Origin: Chloroflexi bacterium HGW-Chloroflexi-1
GTDB taxonomy: Bacteria; Chloroflexota; Anaerolineae; CG2-30-64-16
Direction of reading: 5' to 3'
DNA: 39,661 nucleotides
NCBI GenBank assembly: GCA_002842085.1
Contig: PHCA01000019.1
Location: 1 to 39,661 of the forward strand
Part shown: positions 9,177 through 35,693 of the stretch, in pieces
Layout: the number at the start of each line of letters is the position of its first letter
Position numbering within the stretch: position 1 is the first letter of the stretch
Position numbers and translations under genes: made by a program
Notes under the pieces: model-generated
Told to the model about the DNA's origin: nothing
Database searches by the model: none
Seen by the model: the letters and a program-made list of their open reading frames with translations, nothing else

Positions 9177-9226
9177 GTATCTTCTCAATTTTTCGGGGAA
9201 TCGCTGGCTGTCGCTTGAGAGGATAC
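9177..9226. mobile_element. Repeat family A, minimal 50-bp copy (A1)
   Basis: GTATCTTCTCAA...TTGAGAGGATAC termini; flanks GCGCCGAG / GCGCCGAA (7/8 match). Confidence 0.7.
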
Positions 9227-23083: not shown

Positions 23084-23941
23084 CTATCTCTCTGGACGTA
23101 CGGATATCTCCCCGACGCGCGAGCGCAGATAGAGGCTGGCCGAAGCGTTCTCGCCGACGCTTCCACGCACCTCTTTGCTGAGGAACCCCTCGCGCGCGCT
23201 GCGGCCGGAGAGGACGAAGCCTGGATCCACGTTGCCGATGTCGCTGCGGGCGTCGATGCTGAATGCGCTGTCAGCCGGCACCCGCATCGAGATCCGCCCC
23301 ACATCGCTAGATAGCCTGTAAGCTGCGCCCGGAACCAGAGCGCCGGTGAACTCGACGTTGGCCACCCGGGTCTTGATCTCCAATAATTCCTGAGGCAGTA
23401 CCTGGTTCAGGGTCACCTCGCCGACATCGACCTTGACCGAGAGATCTCCGCTGAGGCCCGCGGCCAAGACCCGCCCAACGTTCACATCCAACGTCGATGC
23501 CGTTTCCGATGGCACGGAGATCACCAGGTCCACCTGCGGCGAACGCGACACATTGCGCACGTCGCTGAGCCCCGTGACCTTGACTCGGACCTGGTTGCCG
23601 GTCTGATCGACACCGATGTCGATGCCGTCCAACACCTCTTGCGCACGATTGCGCGTGCTGCCCCAGGCGCGTTTGGTCGCGGTCACGGTCACCTGCCCAC
23701 TCGTGCCGGCCTCGACCGTGACATCACCCACCGGCACATCCACGCTCAAGCTGACCGGTCCGTCGACAACCAGAGCACGATTGAACTGCCCGGTCACCGC
23801 TACCCGACCGCCCAAGATCCAGGAACCGCCCCAGTCCATGCTGCGCACCATGAAGAAGGCAGCCGTCGCCGCGCAACACAGGCACAGCACGGGAAAAACG
23901 ACCAGGAGCAGGATCCAAATCGTTCGGTTTTTACCCATCAC
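23084..23941 (-). CDS. DUF4097-like beta-solenoid putative adhesin
   Basis: N-terminal TM; repeated short strands VSLSVDVPVGDVTVEAG, LDVNVGRVLAAGLSGDLSVKVDVGEVTL, DVGRISMRVPAD. Confidence 0.75.
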   Translation of the reverse strand: MMGKNRTIWILLLVVFPVLCLCCAATAAFFMVRSMDWGGSWILGGRVAVTGQFNRALVVDGPVSLSVDVPVGDVTVEAGTSGQVTVTATKRAWGSTRNRAQEVLDGIDIGVDQTGNQVRVKVTGLSDVRNVSRSPQVDLVISVPSETASTLDVNVGRVLAAGLSGDLSVKVDVGEVTLNQVLPQELLEIKTRVANVEFTGALVPGAAYRLSSDVGRISMRVPADSAFSIDARSDIGNVDPGFVLSGRSAREGFLSKEVRGSVGENASASLYLRSRVGEISVRPER

Positions 23942-24200
23942 CAGCCTCCCAGCGAGAAAAATTTCGGCATTTTAGCGCTTCCGAAATCTGCCGTTGTCTA
24001 GCTATCCCTCAATACGGGGGCCTGGTGGAAAAGTTGCGCGGTCAACCTTCAGCCGAGACACAAGAAACCGGATTTTTCATCCCTGACATAGCGCGGCCTC
24101 CCGCCGCAACTAAACCCCTTTCAACGCAAAGGCGCGAAGACGCAAAGCCACCAAGCGGTCTTTCGCGCCGATTCAAATGCGCAGTACGTTGGGCAACCGA

Positions 24201-24374
24201 TTACCGGCCGACGAGGACGTACGGAATCCACCGCAAGGGCGAGAGAGGGGAAATGGGCGAAGTCAGCGTACTAGCCAACAACGGGCTGGTTTGCATCTGC
24301 CACGATAACAAAGCGGTGAGCAAAACTGCCAGTGCCAGGATCACTGCGACGCGCCAGGAAAGATTGAACGTCAT
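24201..24374 (-). pseudogene. Short ORF with single TM/signal segment, possible gene remnant
   Basis: MTFNLSWRVAVILALAVLLTALLSWQMQTSPLLASTL... Confidence 0.3.
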
Positions 24375-24402
24375 GTGAACCTCCGAACCAGGGCTATACT
24401 TG

Positions 24403-24469
24403 ACAAGGTGACAGGGTGACAAGTAGACAAGGAAACAAGTAGACAAGGAAACAAGTAGACAAGGTGAAA
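24403..24469. repeat. Octanucleotide tandem mosaic
   Basis: TGACAAGGTGACAGGGTGACAAGTAGACAAGGAAACAAGTAGACAAGG... Confidence 0.85.
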
Positions 24470-24474
24470 AAACC

Positions 24475-24682
24475 GTAACTACTCAGCCTGTCATTGCGAG
24501 GGCCTCGCTGTGGCGAGGGCCTCGCTGTGGCGAGGAGCGTAGTTTGCGGTTGCGAGGCACGGAGCAAAGCAATCTCCGCCATGATGGGGATTGCGGCAAT
24601 CCCGATTGCGGCAATCCCGATTGCGGCAATCAGAGATTGCTTCGCAAACTGCGCTCGCAATGACAGAGGGCTGAGTAGTTAC
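24475..24682. mobile_element. Repeat family B, full copy carrying CATTGCGAG/GCAATC cargo
   Basis: GTAACTACTCAGCCTGTCATTGCGAG ... CTCGCAATGACAGAGGGCTGAGTAGTTAC; flanks AAAAAACC / AAAAAACG. Confidence 0.85.
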
Positions 24683-24689
24683 AAAAAAC

Positions 24690-24812
24690 GTAACTGCTCA
24701 GCCACCCTTGCGAAGATTGCGAATAGCCTGACCGATAGCGCGATTCTTGGCTGACGAGGGCACTTCCGGCCTGAAATCTGCTCACAAACCTTCGCAAGGG
24801 TTCTATGCCTGA
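24690..24812. mobile_element. Repeat family B copy carrying CCTTGCGAAGG-type cargo
   Basis: GTAACTGCTCAGCCACCCTTGCGAAG ... AACCTTCGCAAGGGTTCTATGCCTGA; right terminus diverged. Confidence 0.8.
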
Positions 24813-24934
24813 CCGTGGCGAGTATAACATGGCTCGTTGGGCACGCCAATGGTCAATTGGTCCTATCTGGCCCTGGAGCGATGCATGGGCATCCCGGGCA
24901 TGGCGTTTGCAGTGCGCGTTCCAAGGCGCAAACC

Positions 24935-25047
24935 GTATCATCTCAATAATCCGGGGATGCGACCGGGTGGCACGGTCAGGAGACCGGCCACAGCGAGCAC
25001 GCGGAGACCGGCCACAGCGAGCACGCCCCGAACTATTGAGAAGATAC
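24935..25047. mobile_element. Repeat family A, copy A5 with duplicated internal unit
   Basis: GTATCATCTCAATAATCCGGGG ... CCCCGAACTATTGAGAAGATAC; flanks GCGCAAACC / GCGCGAACC; GGAGACCGGCCACAGCGAGCACGC x2. Confidence 0.85.
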
Positions 25048-25065
25048 GCGCGAACCAACTCGCCC

Positions 25066-25527
25066 TCAACGTTTTGCTGTTTCGCCATTCAAATGGGCCA
25101 ACGCCCGATCGATCATCGCCCGCGTCGCGGGCAACATCTCGTACTGCGCAAGATCGGCGGGGGCCACCCAGCGCACATCGGCCGCATCATCGCCCACGCG
25201 CAGCGTCCCCGACCGGTAATACGCCAGGAAGTCGATCACGACGTAATGATAGCGGATCCGGTCATCAGGGTCGCGTTGAACCGGCTCGAACAGCCCCAAC
25301 AGCGGACCAACAGTCACGTCGATGCCGCATTCTTCCCGCACCTCACGCCGCACCGCGTCCTCCGCGGTCTCGCCCAGTTCGATCAGCCCGCCGGGCACGG
25401 CCCACAGCCCCCTGGCCGGCTCCTGGCCGCGTTGTTCCAGGAGTAGTCGCGCCCCGTCCCACACCACCGCGCCGACACCTGCCAACGGACGGGTGGGAAA
25501 CATGCGTTCCGAATGATCATCGGCCAT
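25066..25527 (-). CDS. Nudix hydrolase
   Basis: Nudix box GGLIELGETAEDAVRREVREECGI; start may be 25503. Confidence 0.9.
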   Translation of the reverse strand: MADDHSERMFPTRPLAGVGAVVWDGARLLLEQRGQEPARGLWAVPGGLIELGETAEDAVRREVREECGIDVTVGPLLGLFEPVQRDPDDRIRYHYVVIDFLAYYRSGTLRVGDDAADVRWVAPADLAQYEMLPATRAMIDRALAHLNGETAKR

Positions 25528-25553
25528 CGGCCTGCCACCCTTCCAAAGGGATG

Positions 25554-25586
25554 AAAAATAGGCCCCTGCGCCAGCAGAGGCCTATT
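25554..25586 (-). terminator. Candidate intrinsic terminator between ferredoxin and Nudix genes
   Basis: Minus strand AATAGGCCTCTG-CTGGCG-CAGGGGCCTATT followed by TTTC. Confidence 0.6.
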
Positions 25587-25653
25587 CCAAAACGGATTAA
25601 TAGGTATCCGCTGTGGCCGGTCTTCCGTGTAGTTTTGCCGCGAAACAACCAGA

Positions 25654-25750
25654 GTATCTTCTCAATTTTTCGGGGAATCGCTCGCTGTGGCCGGTCTCCT
25701 GACCGAGCCACCGTGGCTCGGTCAGGAGACCGGCCACAGCCACCCCGGAT
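25654..25750. mobile_element. Repeat family A, copy A6, right end truncated
   Basis: GTATCTTCTCAATTTTTCGGGGAATCGCTCGCTGTGGCCGGTCTCCTGACCGAGCCACCGTGGCTCGG...CACAGCCACCCCGGATT. Confidence 0.8.
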
Positions 25751-25767
25751 TTGGGCCAAATTCCTTA

Positions 25768-25905
25768 CTAAGGAATCGTGATTAAATAACTTTCACATTT
25801 GTGGACAGCCTTGCGAAGGTTTTTGCCCTGACTTGGGCTAGAAATGGCGTCTTCGGGAACCTTCGCAAGGCTAATCGCGCAAGTTATTTAATTCTCATTC
25901 CTTAG
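25768..25905. mobile_element. Repeat family C, full copy
   Basis: CTAAGGAATCGTGATTAAATAACTT ... AAGTTATTTAATTCTCATTCCTTAG; inner CCTTGCGAAGGTT...AACCTTCGCAAGG. Confidence 0.85.
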
Positions 25906-25907
25906 CC

Positions 25908-26180
25908 CTAAGCCGGGTAACCAGGACCCTCGCTGAAGTACTGGGCGTTCTTGTCGATCGCACCGACATACTGCGGGAATTCGTCAGCCAGGTCGTCAGC
26001 GGGCCGGATCGCGTCCACAGGACACTCGGGGACACAGGCGCCGCAGTCGATGCACGTATCCGGGTCGATGTAGAACCAGGGCCATTTTTCTTCCGGCTCA
26101 CCCGGTACGATACATTCCACCGGACAAACCTCTACACAGGCGCCGTCGCGAATGCACAAGTCGAAAATAACATGCGTCAT
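25908..26180 (-). CDS. Ferredoxin with two Fe-S cluster motifs
   Basis: CIRDGACVEVCPVECIVPG and CIDCGACVPECPVDAI. Confidence 0.92.
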   Translation of the reverse strand: MTHVIFDLCIRDGACVEVCPVECIVPGEPEEKWPWFYIDPDTCIDCGACVPECPVDAIRPADDLADEFPQYVGAIDKNAQYFSEGPGYPA

Positions 26181-26412
26181 TTTGCTCCTCCTGGAGAGCG
26201 ATTGGGGAAGGATTTCGTCGCAGATAACCCACCGAGTGGTTATCGATCAGCAGACCAAGGCCATTTTACAGGCTGTCGTATCGTTTGTCAAGCCAAAGAT
26301 CTCGGCGCGGCGGGGGTCATTCGGAGCCACATCAGCTCTCGGCCAGGACGTGGAGTCGCTCGGGGTTCAGGATAAGGCGGAACGAAAACTATCAAACCCG
26401 CTCACTCTGAGG

Positions 26413-26418
26413 TATAAT
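26413..26418 (+). promoter_or_regulatory. -10 element immediately upstream of an ATG
   Basis: TATAAT at 26413-26418, ATG at 26425. Confidence 0.45.
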
Positions 26419-26424
26419 GCCGGC

Positions 26425-27834
26425 ATGACAGGCACACGATCCGACACGCAAGCCTTGTGGCGCCGCCTCGACGCGCTGGCGCTGGTCACGCTGGTGCTGG
26501 CGCGCATCCGCATCGACACCCTGGCCGAGGCCGCGGTGCTACCCCTGCGCCAGAGTGACGTCGCCCGCCATCCCTGGCTGGGCCACTTGCTGCCGGCGCC
26601 GGCGATGACGCGGTTGGCGCAGCAGGGCCTGGTGGACCCCATCGGGCTGTTGTTGGTGGTGGCGGCGCTGGGGTGTCTCCTGGCCTATTTGCTGGCCGGT
26701 GAATTCGTCAGCGGTGAGCTGGCACGCCACCGGATCAAGATGGCGCTCCTGTGGACCATCGTGCTGCTAACCGTATTTGCGCCCGGCATGAAACTGGTCC
26801 TCTTGCGCCAGGACAGCGGGCCGGCCAGCTACGCTCACGACGGCGGGGTAATCCAGACCGAAGCGACCATCGACATGTTGTTTCAGGGGCGCAACCCCTA
26901 CGTCGAGAATTACCTGGATACGCCGATGGCAGAATGGGGCATCAGTGAGTTCCGCACAGCGCTCTACCATTACCCCTATCTGCCGTGGACATTCCTCTTC
27001 TCGGCGCCTTGCAAGCTGCTGGCCGAACGCACGCTCGGCTGGTACGATCAGCGGCTGGTCTACCTTTTGCTCTTCGCCCTGACCCTGTTGATGCTGCCGG
27101 CCTTGACTCGCACACGGCAGAGCGGCTTGCTGCTGGTGATGCTGATCGGGCTCAACCCGATCATGGGCTCGGACCTGATCTATGGGCAGAACGACAGCTT
27201 CGTGCTGGCCTGGATCGTGTTGAGCCTGTGGCTTTGGATGCGGGGACGCACACGCCAGGATGGGCGCAAATGGACCTGGGGCGCGGCCGCGGTGTTCGGG
27301 CTGGCGTGTGCGAGCAAGCCCACGGCCTGGTTCCTGGCGCCGTTCTACCTCTTGCTGGTGGCCGGGGGCGACCCAACCGACCTCTGGCGTCGGCCGGGGA
27401 TGTGGGTCAGGCGCGCGTGGTGCGCGAGTTGGCCGGCGCTGGTCGTCGCGGCGCTGGTCATCGGGCCGTACCTGCTCTGGAATCCGATCGCCCTGTTCGA
27501 CGACGTCTGGCGGTGGTCCAGCGGCACGTCCGACACCGCGTATCAGATATGGGGCTGGGGCGCTTCAAACCTGGTGATCGTGCTGGGGTGGGTGCAGGAC
27601 CGCTTCGCCTACTGGCCGTTCTGGCTGCCGGAGCTGCTCGTCGGCGCGCCTGTGCTGGCTGCGCTGCTATGGCGGCAGGTGCGAGAGAACAGCCTCACCC
27701 GCGCGCTGTGGGGATACGGGCTTTTCCTTTTCGCCTTCTTCTTCGTCTCCCGTTTTCTCAACGAGAACTACCTGGGCTACATCCTGGCCTTCCTGGCGCT
27801 GGGGACGTTAGCAGATGCGGAACACCGGATGTAA
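26425..27834 (+). CDS. Multi-TM glycosyltransferase-like (mannosyltransferase/DUF2029-type) membrane protein
   Basis: Many TM segments; QGRNPYVENYLDTP, YHYPYLPW, FGLACASKPTAWFLAPF. Confidence 0.7.
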   Translation: MTGTRSDTQALWRRLDALALVTLVLARIRIDTLAEAAVLPLRQSDVARHPWLGHLLPAPAMTRLAQQGLVDPIGLLLVVAALGCLLAYLLAGEFVSGELARHRIKMALLWTIVLLTVFAPGMKLVLLRQDSGPASYAHDGGVIQTEATIDMLFQGRNPYVENYLDTPMAEWGISEFRTALYHYPYLPWTFLFSAPCKLLAERTLGWYDQRLVYLLLFALTLLMLPALTRTRQSGLLLVMLIGLNPIMGSDLIYGQNDSFVLAWIVLSLWLWMRGRTRQDGRKWTWGAAAVFGLACASKPTAWFLAPFYLLLVAGGDPTDLWRRPGMWVRRAWCASWPALVVAALVIGPYLLWNPIALFDDVWRWSSGTSDTAYQIWGWGASNLVIVLGWVQDRFAYWPFWLPELLVGAPVLAALLWRQVRENSLTRALWGYGLFLFAFFFVSRFLNENYLGYILAFLALGTLADAEHRM

Positions 27835-27906
27835 CCGGACGGTCGTCCACCAGTCACACACCATCCGCCGACGACGTAGACCGCCGGCGGCTGGCGCATG
27901 CCGCTA

Positions 27907-28803
27907 CTACTCTGCCGATCCGGGGTTGTATTCGCTCAGCACCGCCCGCAAAGATGGGAGCGTCTCGCGCTGCGCTTCCGCATATTGCTGGAACAAGTAG
28001 TTGGAGCGCGCGGCCAACGTGGCGCCCCGGTCCCCCATACGGAGCGTCAAGACCTGGATCAGGCTATGCAAAATAGCCAACACAGACGTCAACGAAGGAA
28101 ACACCCCGATGGTCTGCACGGGGGCATGGATCACATATTCCGCCTGCGCCGCGGCCGGATTGGTGAGGGCGCCAACGATCGCCACGGTGTGGGCGCCTTC
28201 GGAACGGGCGATCTTCAGAGCAACGGCCACACCGGGCACCAGCCGGGTCGTCCCCAGGCCGATACACAGGTCACCCGGACCCAACGTCACCGACAACGCG
28301 ACGCGCGTAATCAGATCGCCCGGCAAAGCCCGAATCGGAAACCCTAACGCCAGCACGCGCGAGGTGAAGAGATCAGCCAGGTACACACCCGCACCCTCGC
28401 CGATAACATAGATCCGCGGCGCTTTCTCCAACAACTCCACCACCGGCTCGATGACGGCCACATCGGCATGCAACAACATGTACTCCAGGCTGTTGCGATC
28501 CTGTACCAGGCTGCGTTGGAACATCGCAAACGTGGTGTTGTCCTCCGGGCCGCCGGTCGCATACACGGCGCGCAAATCTCGCTTGACATCCGCCTGCACG
28601 TCAGCGATCAACTCCGGGTAGCCGGCATAGCCGAGCCGCTGGGCAAAACGCACCACCAGAGTTGTGTCCACCTCAGTCGCCCGGCCGATCCGGCCGGCTG
28701 TCATGAAAGCGGCCTCCTGGTAATGGTTCAACAGAAAGTCCGCCACGCGCCGATAGCCCGGTGACAGCCGCTCATACGTCTCACGAATGCGTTCTTTATA
28801 CAT
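27907..28803 (-). CDS. MurR/RpiR-family transcriptional regulator with SIS domain (paralog 1)
   Basis: HTH ERLSPGYRRVADFLLNHYQEAAFMTAGRIGRATEVDTTLVVRFAQRLGYAGYPEL; SIS-like C-terminus. Confidence 0.85.
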   Translation of the reverse strand: MYKERIRETYERLSPGYRRVADFLLNHYQEAAFMTAGRIGRATEVDTTLVVRFAQRLGYAGYPELIADVQADVKRDLRAVYATGGPEDNTTFAMFQRSLVQDRNSLEYMLLHADVAVIEPVVELLEKAPRIYVIGEGAGVYLADLFTSRVLALGFPIRALPGDLITRVALSVTLGPGDLCIGLGTTRLVPGVAVALKIARSEGAHTVAIVGALTNPAAAQAEYVIHAPVQTIGVFPSLTSVLAILHSLIQVLTLRMGDRGATLAARSNYLFQQYAEAQRETLPSLRAVLSEYNPGSAE

Positions 28804-28829
28804 ACCAGGATTGTCCTCAAAGAAAAAAG

Positions 28830-29159
28830 GTGTCTTCTCAATAGTTCGGGGCGTGCTCGCTGTGGCCGGTCTCCTGACCGTGCCACGGGTGGCACGGTCA
28901 GGAGACCGGCCACAGCGTCCCCAGATTGGAGACCGGCCACAGCATCCCCAGATTGGAGACCGGCCACAGCATCCCCAGATTGGAGACCGGCCACAGCGTC
29001 CCCAGATTGGAGACCGGCCACAGCATCCCCAGATTGGAGACCGGCCACAGCATCCGGGGCGTTCAACGTAGACCTGTCAGGTTTTTGTTGCGCATCGCAC
29101 AGGACGCCCAGATATGGCCAGAAACCTGACCGGTCTCCCCCGAGTTATTGAGATGATAC
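28830..29159. mobile_element. Repeat family A, 330-bp expanded copy A7 with perfect 8-bp flanking duplication
   Basis: GTGTCTTCTCAATAGTTCGGGG ... CCCCGAGTTATTGAGATGATAC flanked by GAAAAAAG on both sides (28822-28829, 29160-29167). Confidence 0.9.
28901..29055 (+). repeat. 27-bp tandem repeat, 5 full units plus a partial, inside A7
   Basis: GGAGACCGGCCACAGCRTCCCCAGATT repeated. Confidence 0.97.
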
Positions 29160-29309
29160 GAAAAAAGGCTGCGGTGAGGATCATGAGCGATTCCCACCGC
29201 AGCGCGCTACAACAGGTCCTCGAATACACAGAAAACCTGCTCCTGAGACGTCGCCTTGGGGCTAATGCTTTAAACGTCAGTCCCCTCAGCACACCAAACG
29301 TCAGGCGGC

Positions 29310-30134
29310 TCAGGCAAGTCCTTCTAATGCGTGATCGATCTCCGCGGCCCGCTTGGTAGCGGTCTCAGACTGCTCCACGGCCAGCGCCTGGGCTATCGCC
29401 GTGGTAAGTGCGTACAGCCCGGTCAGGCTGGGCAGCGTGCCTTCGACCTCACCCGGGGCATACAACAGATGCTCGGCAGCCCGCGCCGCCTTGCTGCTCA
29501 GGCTCGGGGTGCACGCCAGCGAGATCGCACCCTCGCTCCGCGCAAAACGCAACACTTCCGCGACCCCGGAAGCCCCTTCCACGGGCGTCATGCCGACGAC
29601 CACTTCCTTCCGAACCAGATGCGCCAACTCACGGGCCCGGTCATACACATCACCGCCTGCATAAACCACCGGCAGCTCAGCGGCCTTGAGCATGCCGGCG
29701 AAGGACTCGGCGATCGGCGCCGCATAGGATTCACCGGTCACGATGATACGGGGCGCCGCGCGCAGCATGTCCAGCACGTTCTCGATGGCCTCCAGGGTGT
29801 TGTGCGCCAACAATTTTTCCAGGTTGGCCCGGTCCTGTGCCACCAAACTCTGCACCTTGGCCTCGACCGTGTCTTCCTCGGCCGGCAAAGCATAGGTCTG
29901 GTTTAGCTCGAGCTTCACCTGCTCCTGGATGTCGTCGATCAGCTCGGGATAACCCGGGTAGCCAAGGCGTTGGGCAAAACGCACCACCGTGGTTGTGTCG
30001 ACATCGACTGTGTCAGCCAAAGCGGCGGCTGTCAAGAACGCAGCCGTCCGATAGTCGCTGAGGATGAAATCAGCGACTCGCCGATAACTGCGCGACAGAT
30101 GGTCGTAGTGCTTGCGGATTTGCTCTCGAAACAT
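29310..30134 (-). CDS. MurR/RpiR-family transcriptional regulator with SIS domain (paralog 2)
   Basis: HYDHLSRSYRRVADFILSDYRTAAFLTAAALADTVDVDTTTVVRFAQRLGYPGYPEL; SIS-like C-terminus. Confidence 0.85.
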   Translation of the reverse strand: MFREQIRKHYDHLSRSYRRVADFILSDYRTAAFLTAAALADTVDVDTTTVVRFAQRLGYPGYPELIDDIQEQVKLELNQTYALPAEEDTVEAKVQSLVAQDRANLEKLLAHNTLEAIENVLDMLRAAPRIIVTGESYAAPIAESFAGMLKAAELPVVYAGGDVYDRARELAHLVRKEVVVGMTPVEGASGVAEVLRFARSEGAISLACTPSLSSKAARAAEHLLYAPGEVEGTLPSLTGLYALTTAIAQALAVEQSETATKRAAEIDHALEGLA

Positions 30135-30194
30135 GTCTCACCTCAGTAGAATAGTTGTGCCAGTTCCCTCCTCGGGATCCTGGCGGTTGTGCGT

Positions 30195-30217
30195 CTCCGA
30201 ACGACAGTCGTTCGGAG
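30195..30217. promoter_or_regulatory. Perfect 23-bp palindrome upstream of rpiR-like paralog 2
   Basis: CTCCGAACGAC-A-GTCGTTCGGAG, 60 bp upstream of the start codon at 30134. Confidence 0.45.
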
Positions 30218-30604
30218 GGCGGAGCGCCTTCGCTGGCCTGATCGTGATACCGAACGCTCCAACCAAAGCCCTCCTCTGCAGCCAGACATCACCGCGTTTA
30301 CAAGCCTTTCTCCACGAACCGGTTGCCCGTCGAAGGGGCCGTGCGGCCGTCCGCGACCGGTTCGCCTGGGGGAATGATAGTCAGCCTGGCAGTTCATCTG
30401 ATGCGTTGCAGATGTTGGACTATTCTACAATATTATTTCTGCTTTGTCAACTTTTTTTTAGGGCAAATCGACAGATTCACTCTACTTCTACGGCCATACC
30501 TCGTCACGAACACACCGATATCCGAAAACAAGTACCGAAATGCGCACCCGCACCCCCTCAGGACCATCGCTTTGACAGAACCGCAGTCCTGAGCTATTCT
30601 ATAC

Positions 30605-30706
30605 TTGACAAGGTGACAGGGTGACAGGGTAAATTGGTAAATTGGTGACGGGGTGACGGGGTGACGGGGTGACGGGGTGACGGGGTGAAAAGGTGACAAG
30701 GTGAAA
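30605..30706. repeat. Octanucleotide tandem mosaic
   Basis: TTGACAAGGTGACAGGGTGACAGGGTAAATTGG...(GGTGACGG)n...GGTGACAAGGTGAAAAAAC. Confidence 0.9.
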
Positions 30707-30749
30707 AAACCTCACCTTATGACCGTGGCGAGTATAACTCTGGAACTGC

Positions 30750-30816
30750 CTTATCTTTTCAATAATCCAGGGTGGCTGTGGCCGGTCTCCTGACCGAGCC
30801 ACAGCGCGAGCTATCC
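30750..30816. mobile_element. Repeat family A, truncated copy A8
   Basis: TTATCTTTTCAATAATCCAGGGTGGCTGTGGCCGGTCTCCTGACCGAGCCACAGC. Confidence 0.65.
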
Positions 30817-30910
30817 TGACTGCCGACCAGATGAGGACAATTGTCAAGTTCCGGTCATTTGAAAATCCGGGGGAGCTCAGGCTTTGAGACGTCGGGGATT
30901 TGATGGAGCC

Positions 30911-31942
30911 ATGACAATACGTTTGCTAATCTGGTGGGCGCTGGCGCTTATCCTGATCACTGAACTGCTCGGCTGCGCCGCTCCAGTGAACAGGCCTTCA
31001 CCGGCCACCACTACACGCCCTCAGGCCACCGAGACAACGCGAAGCTCTCGGGACACAGCCACCGCACGCCCATCGTTCACGACGACGATCGAGGTCCTGC
31101 CGCCGACCGGGACGCCGACCCCGACCTCCGCCCTGCCGACCCCGACGACCACCCCCACTACGACCCGGACGGCCACGCCAACGGCTACGCCGACCAACAC
31201 ATCAACACCGAGCCCCACCCATACCCCCGGGCCGACACCGGATGGCACGGCGCGCACGGTGCGGGCACCGATCCTGATGTACCATTATGTCTCAGAGCCG
31301 CCGCAAGATGCCGACGACATCCGGCAAGACCTCTCAGTGCCCCCGGAACGCTTCGATGACCACCTCCGGTACTTATCAGACGCCGGTTATCACGTGATCA
31401 CCCTGGATGACCTGCTCTACGCCCTGACACAAGGCCGGGCATTGCCGGACAAACCCATCATCCTGACCTTCGACGATGGCTACGAGGACAACTACCTCAA
31501 CGCGTTTCCACTGCTGCAAAAGTATGGGATGGTGGGTGAGTTTTTCATCATGACCGACGTCGTCAACGCAAAAACCGCAGGCTATATGACCTGGGCGCAG
31601 ATCGAGGAGATGGCCCGAGTCGGACAACGGTTCGGTTCCCACAGTCGAGATCACCCGGACCTGTGGGGGAAATCGGTGGACTACCTGGTGTGGCAAGCGC
31701 TGGGCGGCATGGAGGCGATCCAGGAGCACCTCGGCTACCATCCACGCTGGATCTCGTACCCTTCTGGCAGCTACGACGCGCAAGTCATCGCGGTCTACAA
31801 ATCGGCCAACTACTGGGGCGGGTTGACCACCCATCAGGGCGCCACGCACACGCCAGGCGACATTTTCGAGCTCACACGCGTGCGCGTGCGCGGCAGCCAC
31901 ACGGCGCAGGATCTCGCCACGCTGCTGAAGCTGGACCGGTAG
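30911..31942 (+). CDS. Polysaccharide deacetylase-family lipoprotein
   Basis: Lipobox LITELLGCAA; Thr/Pro linker; PIILTFDDGYEDNYLNAFPLLQKYGMVGEFFI; GSHSRDHPDL. Confidence 0.92.
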   Translation: MTIRLLIWWALALILITELLGCAAPVNRPSPATTTRPQATETTRSSRDTATARPSFTTTIEVLPPTGTPTPTSALPTPTTTPTTTRTATPTATPTNTSTPSPTHTPGPTPDGTARTVRAPILMYHYVSEPPQDADDIRQDLSVPPERFDDHLRYLSDAGYHVITLDDLLYALTQGRALPDKPIILTFDDGYEDNYLNAFPLLQKYGMVGEFFIMTDVVNAKTAGYMTWAQIEEMARVGQRFGSHSRDHPDLWGKSVDYLVWQALGGMEAIQEHLGYHPRWISYPSGSYDAQVIAVYKSANYWGGLTTHQGATHTPGDIFELTRVRVRGSHTAQDLATLLKLDR

Positions 31943-35582: not shown

Positions 35583-35693
35583 GTATCTTCTCAATAGTGC
35601 GAGGCGTGCTCGCTGTGGCCGGTCTCCTGACCGTGCCACGGGTGGCACGGTCAGGAGACCGGCCACAGCATCCCCAGATTATTGAGATGATAC
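35583..35693. mobile_element. Repeat family A, copy A9
   Basis: GTATCTTCTCAATAGTGCG...CCCCAGATTATTGAGATGATAC; flanks GGAACTTA / GAAACTTA. Confidence 0.85.

What the first reader, a model, noticed from the sequence alone, without database searches (positions are those of the whole stretch)
24393..24829. Apparent filled versus empty insertion site for a family B element
The octamer arrays at ~24393 and ~30597 share outer sequence: CTATACTTGACAAGGTGACAGGGTGACA at one side and ATGACCGTGGCGAGTATAAC / CTGACCGTGGCGAGTATAAC at the other. In the 30.7-kb copy the junction reads GGTGAAAAAACCTCACC. In the 24.4-kb copy it reads GGTGAAAAAACC-[GTAAC...GTTAC]-AAAAAACG. A single A6C site has become two copies around the element, as expected for insertion with duplication. 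A second family B element (24690) follows immediately.
Basis: seen in the sequence. Interest (0 to 1): 0.72.

Follow-up and report, generated by a model that had tools for sequence, protein, structure and literature searches.

The report
Transposon scraps nested in a repeat
A short transposon fragment with no gene of its own has jumped into a repeated sequence, copying 8 letters of the target on each side, while a sister copy of the repeat 6 kb away still shows the untouched site; this is ordinary mobile-DNA behaviour, unusually well preserved.

Summary
At 24395-24826 a composite octamer repeat carries a 208-bp element (24475-24682) with perfect inverted ends GTAACTACTCAGCC, flanked by AAAAAACC and AAAAAAC. 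The sister repeat at 30600-30736 has one uninterrupted GGTGAAAAAACCTCACC.

Genome-wide, 30 of 42 paired elements with these ends carry an exact target duplication, always 8 bp (about 0 expected). In fetched sequence, ten A-tract sites of the composite are empty with a single A-run; filled ones hold an element there. The ends match autonomous IS66-family elements (ISBst12 type, single transposase) in the same class, several with perfect 8-bp duplications, and the published ISDge4, which was caught transposing with an 8-bp repeat. The elements are therefore non-autonomous IS66/ISBst12 MITEs.

Corrections: the duplication is 8 bp (AAAAAACC), not A6C. The second element (24690-24812) most likely landed in the right-hand duplication and later lost its right end through a TGA microhomology deletion. 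The 30.7-kb copy is a paralogous, not ancestral, empty site. The composite is itself an inverted repeat whose 49-bp minimal form survives. No IS66 transposase was found in this MAG. A new MITE family of a known kind.

The parts
24395..24474 (+). Left part of the composite repeat: inverted end TATACTTGACAAGGTGAC, octamer array, then GGTG and the left target copy AAAAAACC (24467-24474)
24467..24474 (.). Left copy of the 8-bp target duplication, AAAAAACC
24475..24682 (.). Element 1: 208-bp IS66/ISBst12-type MITE, perfect 14-bp inverted ends GTAACTACTCAGCC/GGCTGAGTAGTTAC, whole body folds back (DNA fold z-score -11)
24683..24689 (.). Right copy of the duplication, AAAAAAC; the 8th base is displaced by element 2
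24690..24812 (+). Element 2: second MITE subfamily (GTAACTGCTCAGCCACCCTTGCGAAG...), right end truncated after CCTGA; intact copies end CCTGAGCAGTTAC
24810..24826 (+). Right inverted end of the composite repeat, TGACCGTGGCGAGTATA; TGA (24810-24812) shared with element 2, the inferred deletion microhomology
30600..30736 (+). Empty paralogous copy of the composite repeat
30704..30711 (.). Single, unduplicated target site AAAAAACC in the empty copy

Best explanation
The 208-bp element at 24475-24682 is a non-autonomous miniature transposon (MITE) carrying the ends of the ISBst12 subgroup of the IS66 family. A transposase supplied in trans, absent from this assembly, bound its GTAACTACTCAGCC ends and inserted it at the A-tract of a composite repeat. 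The staggered cut was filled in to give the 8-bp duplication AAAAAACC. A second MITE subfamily with related ends then inserted into the right-hand duplication (target CAAAAAAC, sharing the last C of element 1). A later deletion at a TGA microhomology removed its right end, its right duplication and the CTCACCTTA part of the composite. Shown: the ends, the 8-bp duplication across the family, the empty paralogous sites, and autonomous IS66 elements with the same ends and duplications. Inferred: the order of events, the deletion, and mobilisation in trans.
For: Of 42 paired elements with GTAACTRCTCAG ends in fetched own-genome sequence, 30 have an exact flanking duplication of 8 bp, none of any other length from 4 to 11; swapped flanks give 0.000 expected at 8 bp (list). 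The window element matches 7 of 8, and the 8th base is where element 2 begins. Ten empty A-tract sites of the composite have one A-run. Filled ones include C97 around 46 kb (L063), with AAAAAAAC on both sides of one MITE and AAAAAACC on both sides of a second, and L132, with GAAAAAAC on both sides of another element type. Autonomous elements with these ends exist in the same class: L171 (1,560 bp, ends GTAACTGCTCAGGCA, 491-aa transposase, NCBIfam IS66 E 3e-93, Pfam DDE_Tnp_IS66). Four others have perfect 8-bp duplications: L244 CCGGAAGG and L246 GCCAAAGA (ends GTAACTACTAAGCC), L252 GATTTTAG and L262 GTCCGCTC. Published ISDge4 (IS66, ISBst12 group) was caught transposing with ends GTGACTACTCAGCA/GTAACTGCTCAGCA and 8-bp repeat CCTCGATG (PMC12898284).
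Against: No IS66 transposase was found in the window's genome or its genus-mate, so the mobilising enzyme is inferred; the assembly has 419 contigs and may lack multicopy elements. L171 itself lacks a recognisable duplication. The right-hand copy in the window is only 7 of 8. No orthologous empty locus could be found: the genus-mate showed no match to the flanking genes and family members are too diverged.
Confidence: 0.93

Rival explanations
1. The A6C run belongs to the 5' end of each element (a fixed AAAAAAC-GTAACT start), so its two copies come from two tandem elements and not from target duplication.
For: In the window both elements are preceded by AAAAAAC.
Against: Across 42 elements the flanking 8-mers differ (GTTTCTTC, CAACGAGC, GGATCCGC, CCCGCGGT and others) yet match on the two sides within each element. 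Empty composite sites carry the A-run with no element.
Confidence: 0.02
2. The arrangement arose by recombination or slippage between repeats (octamers, fold-back elements), not by transposition.
For: The region is repeat-rich and the octamer arrays clearly expand and contract. Element 2 is joined to the composite by a recombination-like TGA junction.
Against: Slippage does not give a constant 8-bp duplication at 30 dispersed, unrelated sites.
Confidence: 0.04
3. The order was reversed: element 2 inserted first, then element 1 upstream of it with target AAAAAACG. (A variant of the best explanation: same mechanism, different history.)
For: It also yields A6C on both sides of element 1.
Against: It predicts AAAAAACG on the left, but AAAAAACC is seen and is also the base in the empty copies, so an extra mutation is needed. 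The order element 1 then element 2 needs none.
Confidence: 0.15

Closest known systems
IS66 family, ISBst12 group (ISDge4 of Deinococcus geothermalis, PMC12898284)
   Same: Inverted ends GTAACTRCTCAGC and an 8-bp target duplication
   Different: ISDge4 encodes a 449-aa transposase; the window elements are short (61-309 bp across the family) and carry none, and no transposase was found in this genome
Classical IS66 elements (ends GTAAGCG, 8-bp duplication; PMC11946415)
   Same: Ends begin GTAA; 8-bp duplication
   Different: Ends differ after the fourth base. Classical members carry tnpA and tnpB besides the DDE transposase (PMC12888890); the parents found here have a single transposase gene
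Bacterial MITEs such as MITEPsy1 (PMC3189936)
   Same: Short, non-coding, inverted ends shared with an IS, thought to be mobilised in trans
   Different: MITEPsy1 gives a 4-bp duplication and derives from another IS family

Membership tests
MITE of the IS66 family, ISBst12 group | Terminal inverted repeats beginning GTAA and matching autonomous members | tested here: met
   GTAACTACTCAGCC ends; autonomous L171, L244, L246 and published ISDge4 share them with few differences over the first 12 bases
MITE of the IS66 family, ISBst12 group | 8-bp target duplication | tested here: met
   30 of 42 elements exact at 8 bp, no other length from 4 to 11; the window copy 7 of 8 with the 8th base displaced
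MITE of the IS66 family, ISBst12 group | Short, without a transposase gene | tested here: met
   Elements 61-309 bp, median 137
MITE of the IS66 family, ISBst12 group | IS66-type DDE transposase in autonomous elements with the same ends | tested here: met
   L171 transposase: NF033517 E 3e-93, PF03050 E 4e-43
MITE of the IS66 family, ISBst12 group | Cognate transposase present in the same genome (not needed to be a MITE, but needed for present activity) | tested here: not met
   No PF03050 match and no match to the L171 protein at 1e-20; the fragmented MAG leaves a missing or collapsed copy possible
MITE of the IS66 family, ISBst12 group | Mobilisation in trans | not testable with these tools
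   Needs a transposition assay
Composite octamer repeat as a mobile element | Target-site duplication beyond chance at its own ends | tested here: inconclusive
   No excess of matching flanks in a loosely collected set that includes many off-target matches; only the constant TATA at both ends

The most novel reading that the evidence does not exclude
The A-tract inside the composite repeat is a favoured landing site shared by several unrelated MITE families (two GTAACTRCTCAG subfamilies, the GTATCYTCTCAAT family and a GCARTASCGC family), so that the 49-bp palindromic repeat acts as a dispersed dock in which mobile scraps accumulate and diversify away from genes.
Probability: 0.3. Interest if true: 0.45.

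Novelty: new member of a known kind. Interest (0 to 1): 0.33.

Why it matters
IS66 transposition, and the ISBst12 group above all, is poorly studied; a 2026 paper claims the first active member (PMC12898284). Here non-autonomous copies at roughly a hundred places show the exact ends, a strict 8-bp duplication and both empty and filled versions of one target. They also show how bacterial intergenic repeats are built up by nested insertion and microhomology loss.

Tried and rejected
IS66 transposase in the own genome and genus-mate: none. Orthologous empty sites: the genus-mate G001, apparently Anaerolineae bacterium CG2_30_64_16 since its hits coincide with those of G298, gave no match to the flanking genes, and a second test locus matched repeats only. 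In family members the parts of the syntenic interval that were fetched show no composite and no pair of GTAACTRCTCAG ends, but identity near 70-75% makes this weak. Target duplication of the composite itself: none detected with a loose collection. Rfam on 23900-31000: nothing. The literal string GTAACTACTCAG in the paper library: one unrelated paper. Enrichment of MITEs in composites: at least 5 observed; expected 0.24 if uniform (P about 6e-6), but 1.6 if confined to an assumed 15% intergenic fraction (P about 0.03), so only suggestive, and part of the sample was chosen through composites.

Full report
OBSERVATION. They share the left end TATACTTGACAAGGTGAC and the right end TGACCGTGGCGAGTATA, which are imperfect inverted repeats of each other. 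With up to two mismatches the left end occurs 86 times and the right end 40 times in the genome holding the window (4.45 Mb, 419 contigs); reversed controls give none. Other copies show what the composite is: the shortest are 49 bp, for example TATACTTGACAAGGTGAAAAAACCTCACTTTATGACCGTGGCGAATATA (L089) and L071. Longer ones are this core with expanded octamers or inserted elements. Another genome (Caldilineaceae bacterium CHL15) has many copies of a related 73-bp form.

EMPTY AND FILLED SITES. The core contains GGTGAAAAAACCTCAC. In fetched own-genome sequence ten copies have this A-tract empty, each with a single A-run, and five are filled. L052, whose array differs just before the tract, holds a sixth, truncated insertion. 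L063 (contig C97 near 46 kb) holds two elements in the same tract: AAAAAAAC on both sides of a GTACCTACTCAG/GTAACTACTCAG element, then AAAAAACC on both sides of a GTATCTTCTC element. L132 holds a third kind with GAAAAAAC on both sides. L155 is a deletion scar keeping only CTGAGCAGTTAC. L098 keeps only the left part.

THE ELEMENT FAMILY. The end GTAACTACTCAG occurs 228 times with up to one mismatch, against 8 for the control. Of 42 paired elements of 61-309 bp (median 137), 30 have an exact flanking duplication and all are 8 bp; none has 4-7 or 9-11, and swapped flanks give zero expected at 8. Element 1 of the window gives 7 of 8. The missing match is the base where element 2 starts, as expected if element 2 inserted into the right-hand duplication with its own 8-bp target CAAAAAAC. 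Intact copies of element 2's subfamily end CCTGAGCAGTTAC (L011, L016); in the window the sequence passes from CCTGA directly into CCGTGGCGAGTATAAC. TGA is common to both partners, so a microhomology deletion is the simplest account. It also explains why CTCACCTTA is missing and why the base before TGACC is C here and A at 30.7 kb.

MECHANISM AND PARENT. No IS66 transposase was found in the own genome. One was found in G047, a same-class genome that also has 23 exact GTAACTACTCAGCC ends: L171, 1,560 bp, ends GTAACTGCTCAGGCA, one 491-aa transposase. A wider search of 298 same-class genomes gave more, and inspection of their ends showed GTAACTACTAAGCC and related ends with perfect 8-bp duplications in L244, L246, L252 and L262. 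The literature agrees: ISDge4 of Deinococcus geothermalis, ISBst12 group, transposed with ends GTGACTACTCAGCA/GTAACTGCTCAGCA and the 8-bp repeat CCTCGATG (PMC12898284); IS66 in Frankia also gives 8-bp repeats (PMC11946415). Mobilisation in trans is inferred from shared ends.

LIMITS. The 30.7-kb copy is a paralogue, so it shows the form of the empty site, not this locus before insertion. No orthologous locus could be compared. The composite's own mobility is unproven. The taxon is inferred: the genus-mate G001 appears to be Anaerolineae bacterium CG2_30_64_16 (coinciding hits), which places the window in class Anaerolineae.

VERDICT. The finding is correct in essence and belongs to a known mechanism: a new MITE family of the IS66/ISBst12 group nested in a palindromic intergenic repeat. 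The recurrent use of one A-tract by several MITE families is suggestive but not established.

Noticed in passing
window 9177-9226, 24935-25047, 28830-29159, 35583-35693: Members of a second MITE family with ends GTATCYTCTCAAT; 23 of 50 paired copies in fetched own-genome sequence have exact 8-bp duplications. The end resembles GTAACTACTCAG, so an IS66-type parent is plausible but was not found.
   Followed up: partly
L132:934-1097: A further short fold-back element (ends GCAATAGCGCAAAACTCAC / GCAGTACCGCAAAACTCAC) in the same A-tract with GAAAAAAC on both sides.
   Followed up: no
L177, L180, L181, L183, L191, L207 (Caldilineaceae bacterium CHL15): A 73-bp TATACTTGAC...TCGAGTATA repeat in many near-identical copies, apparently a relative of the composite core without octamer expansion; no target duplication seen.
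   Followed up: partly
L037:1040-1287: A GTAACTACTCAG element inserted inside an octamer array with AATTGGTG on both sides.
   Followed up: partly
L161, L169 (genus-mate G001): Neighbouring GTTACTACTCAGCC elements that share the intervening flank (TCCTTTTG in L161), as in the window: a second insertion in or beside the first one's duplication.
   Followed up: no
L073, L077, L137 (own genome): Composite copies broken after CTCAC(C/T)TTAT by a sequence beginning AGTATTAC, which may be yet another inserted element.
   Followed up: no
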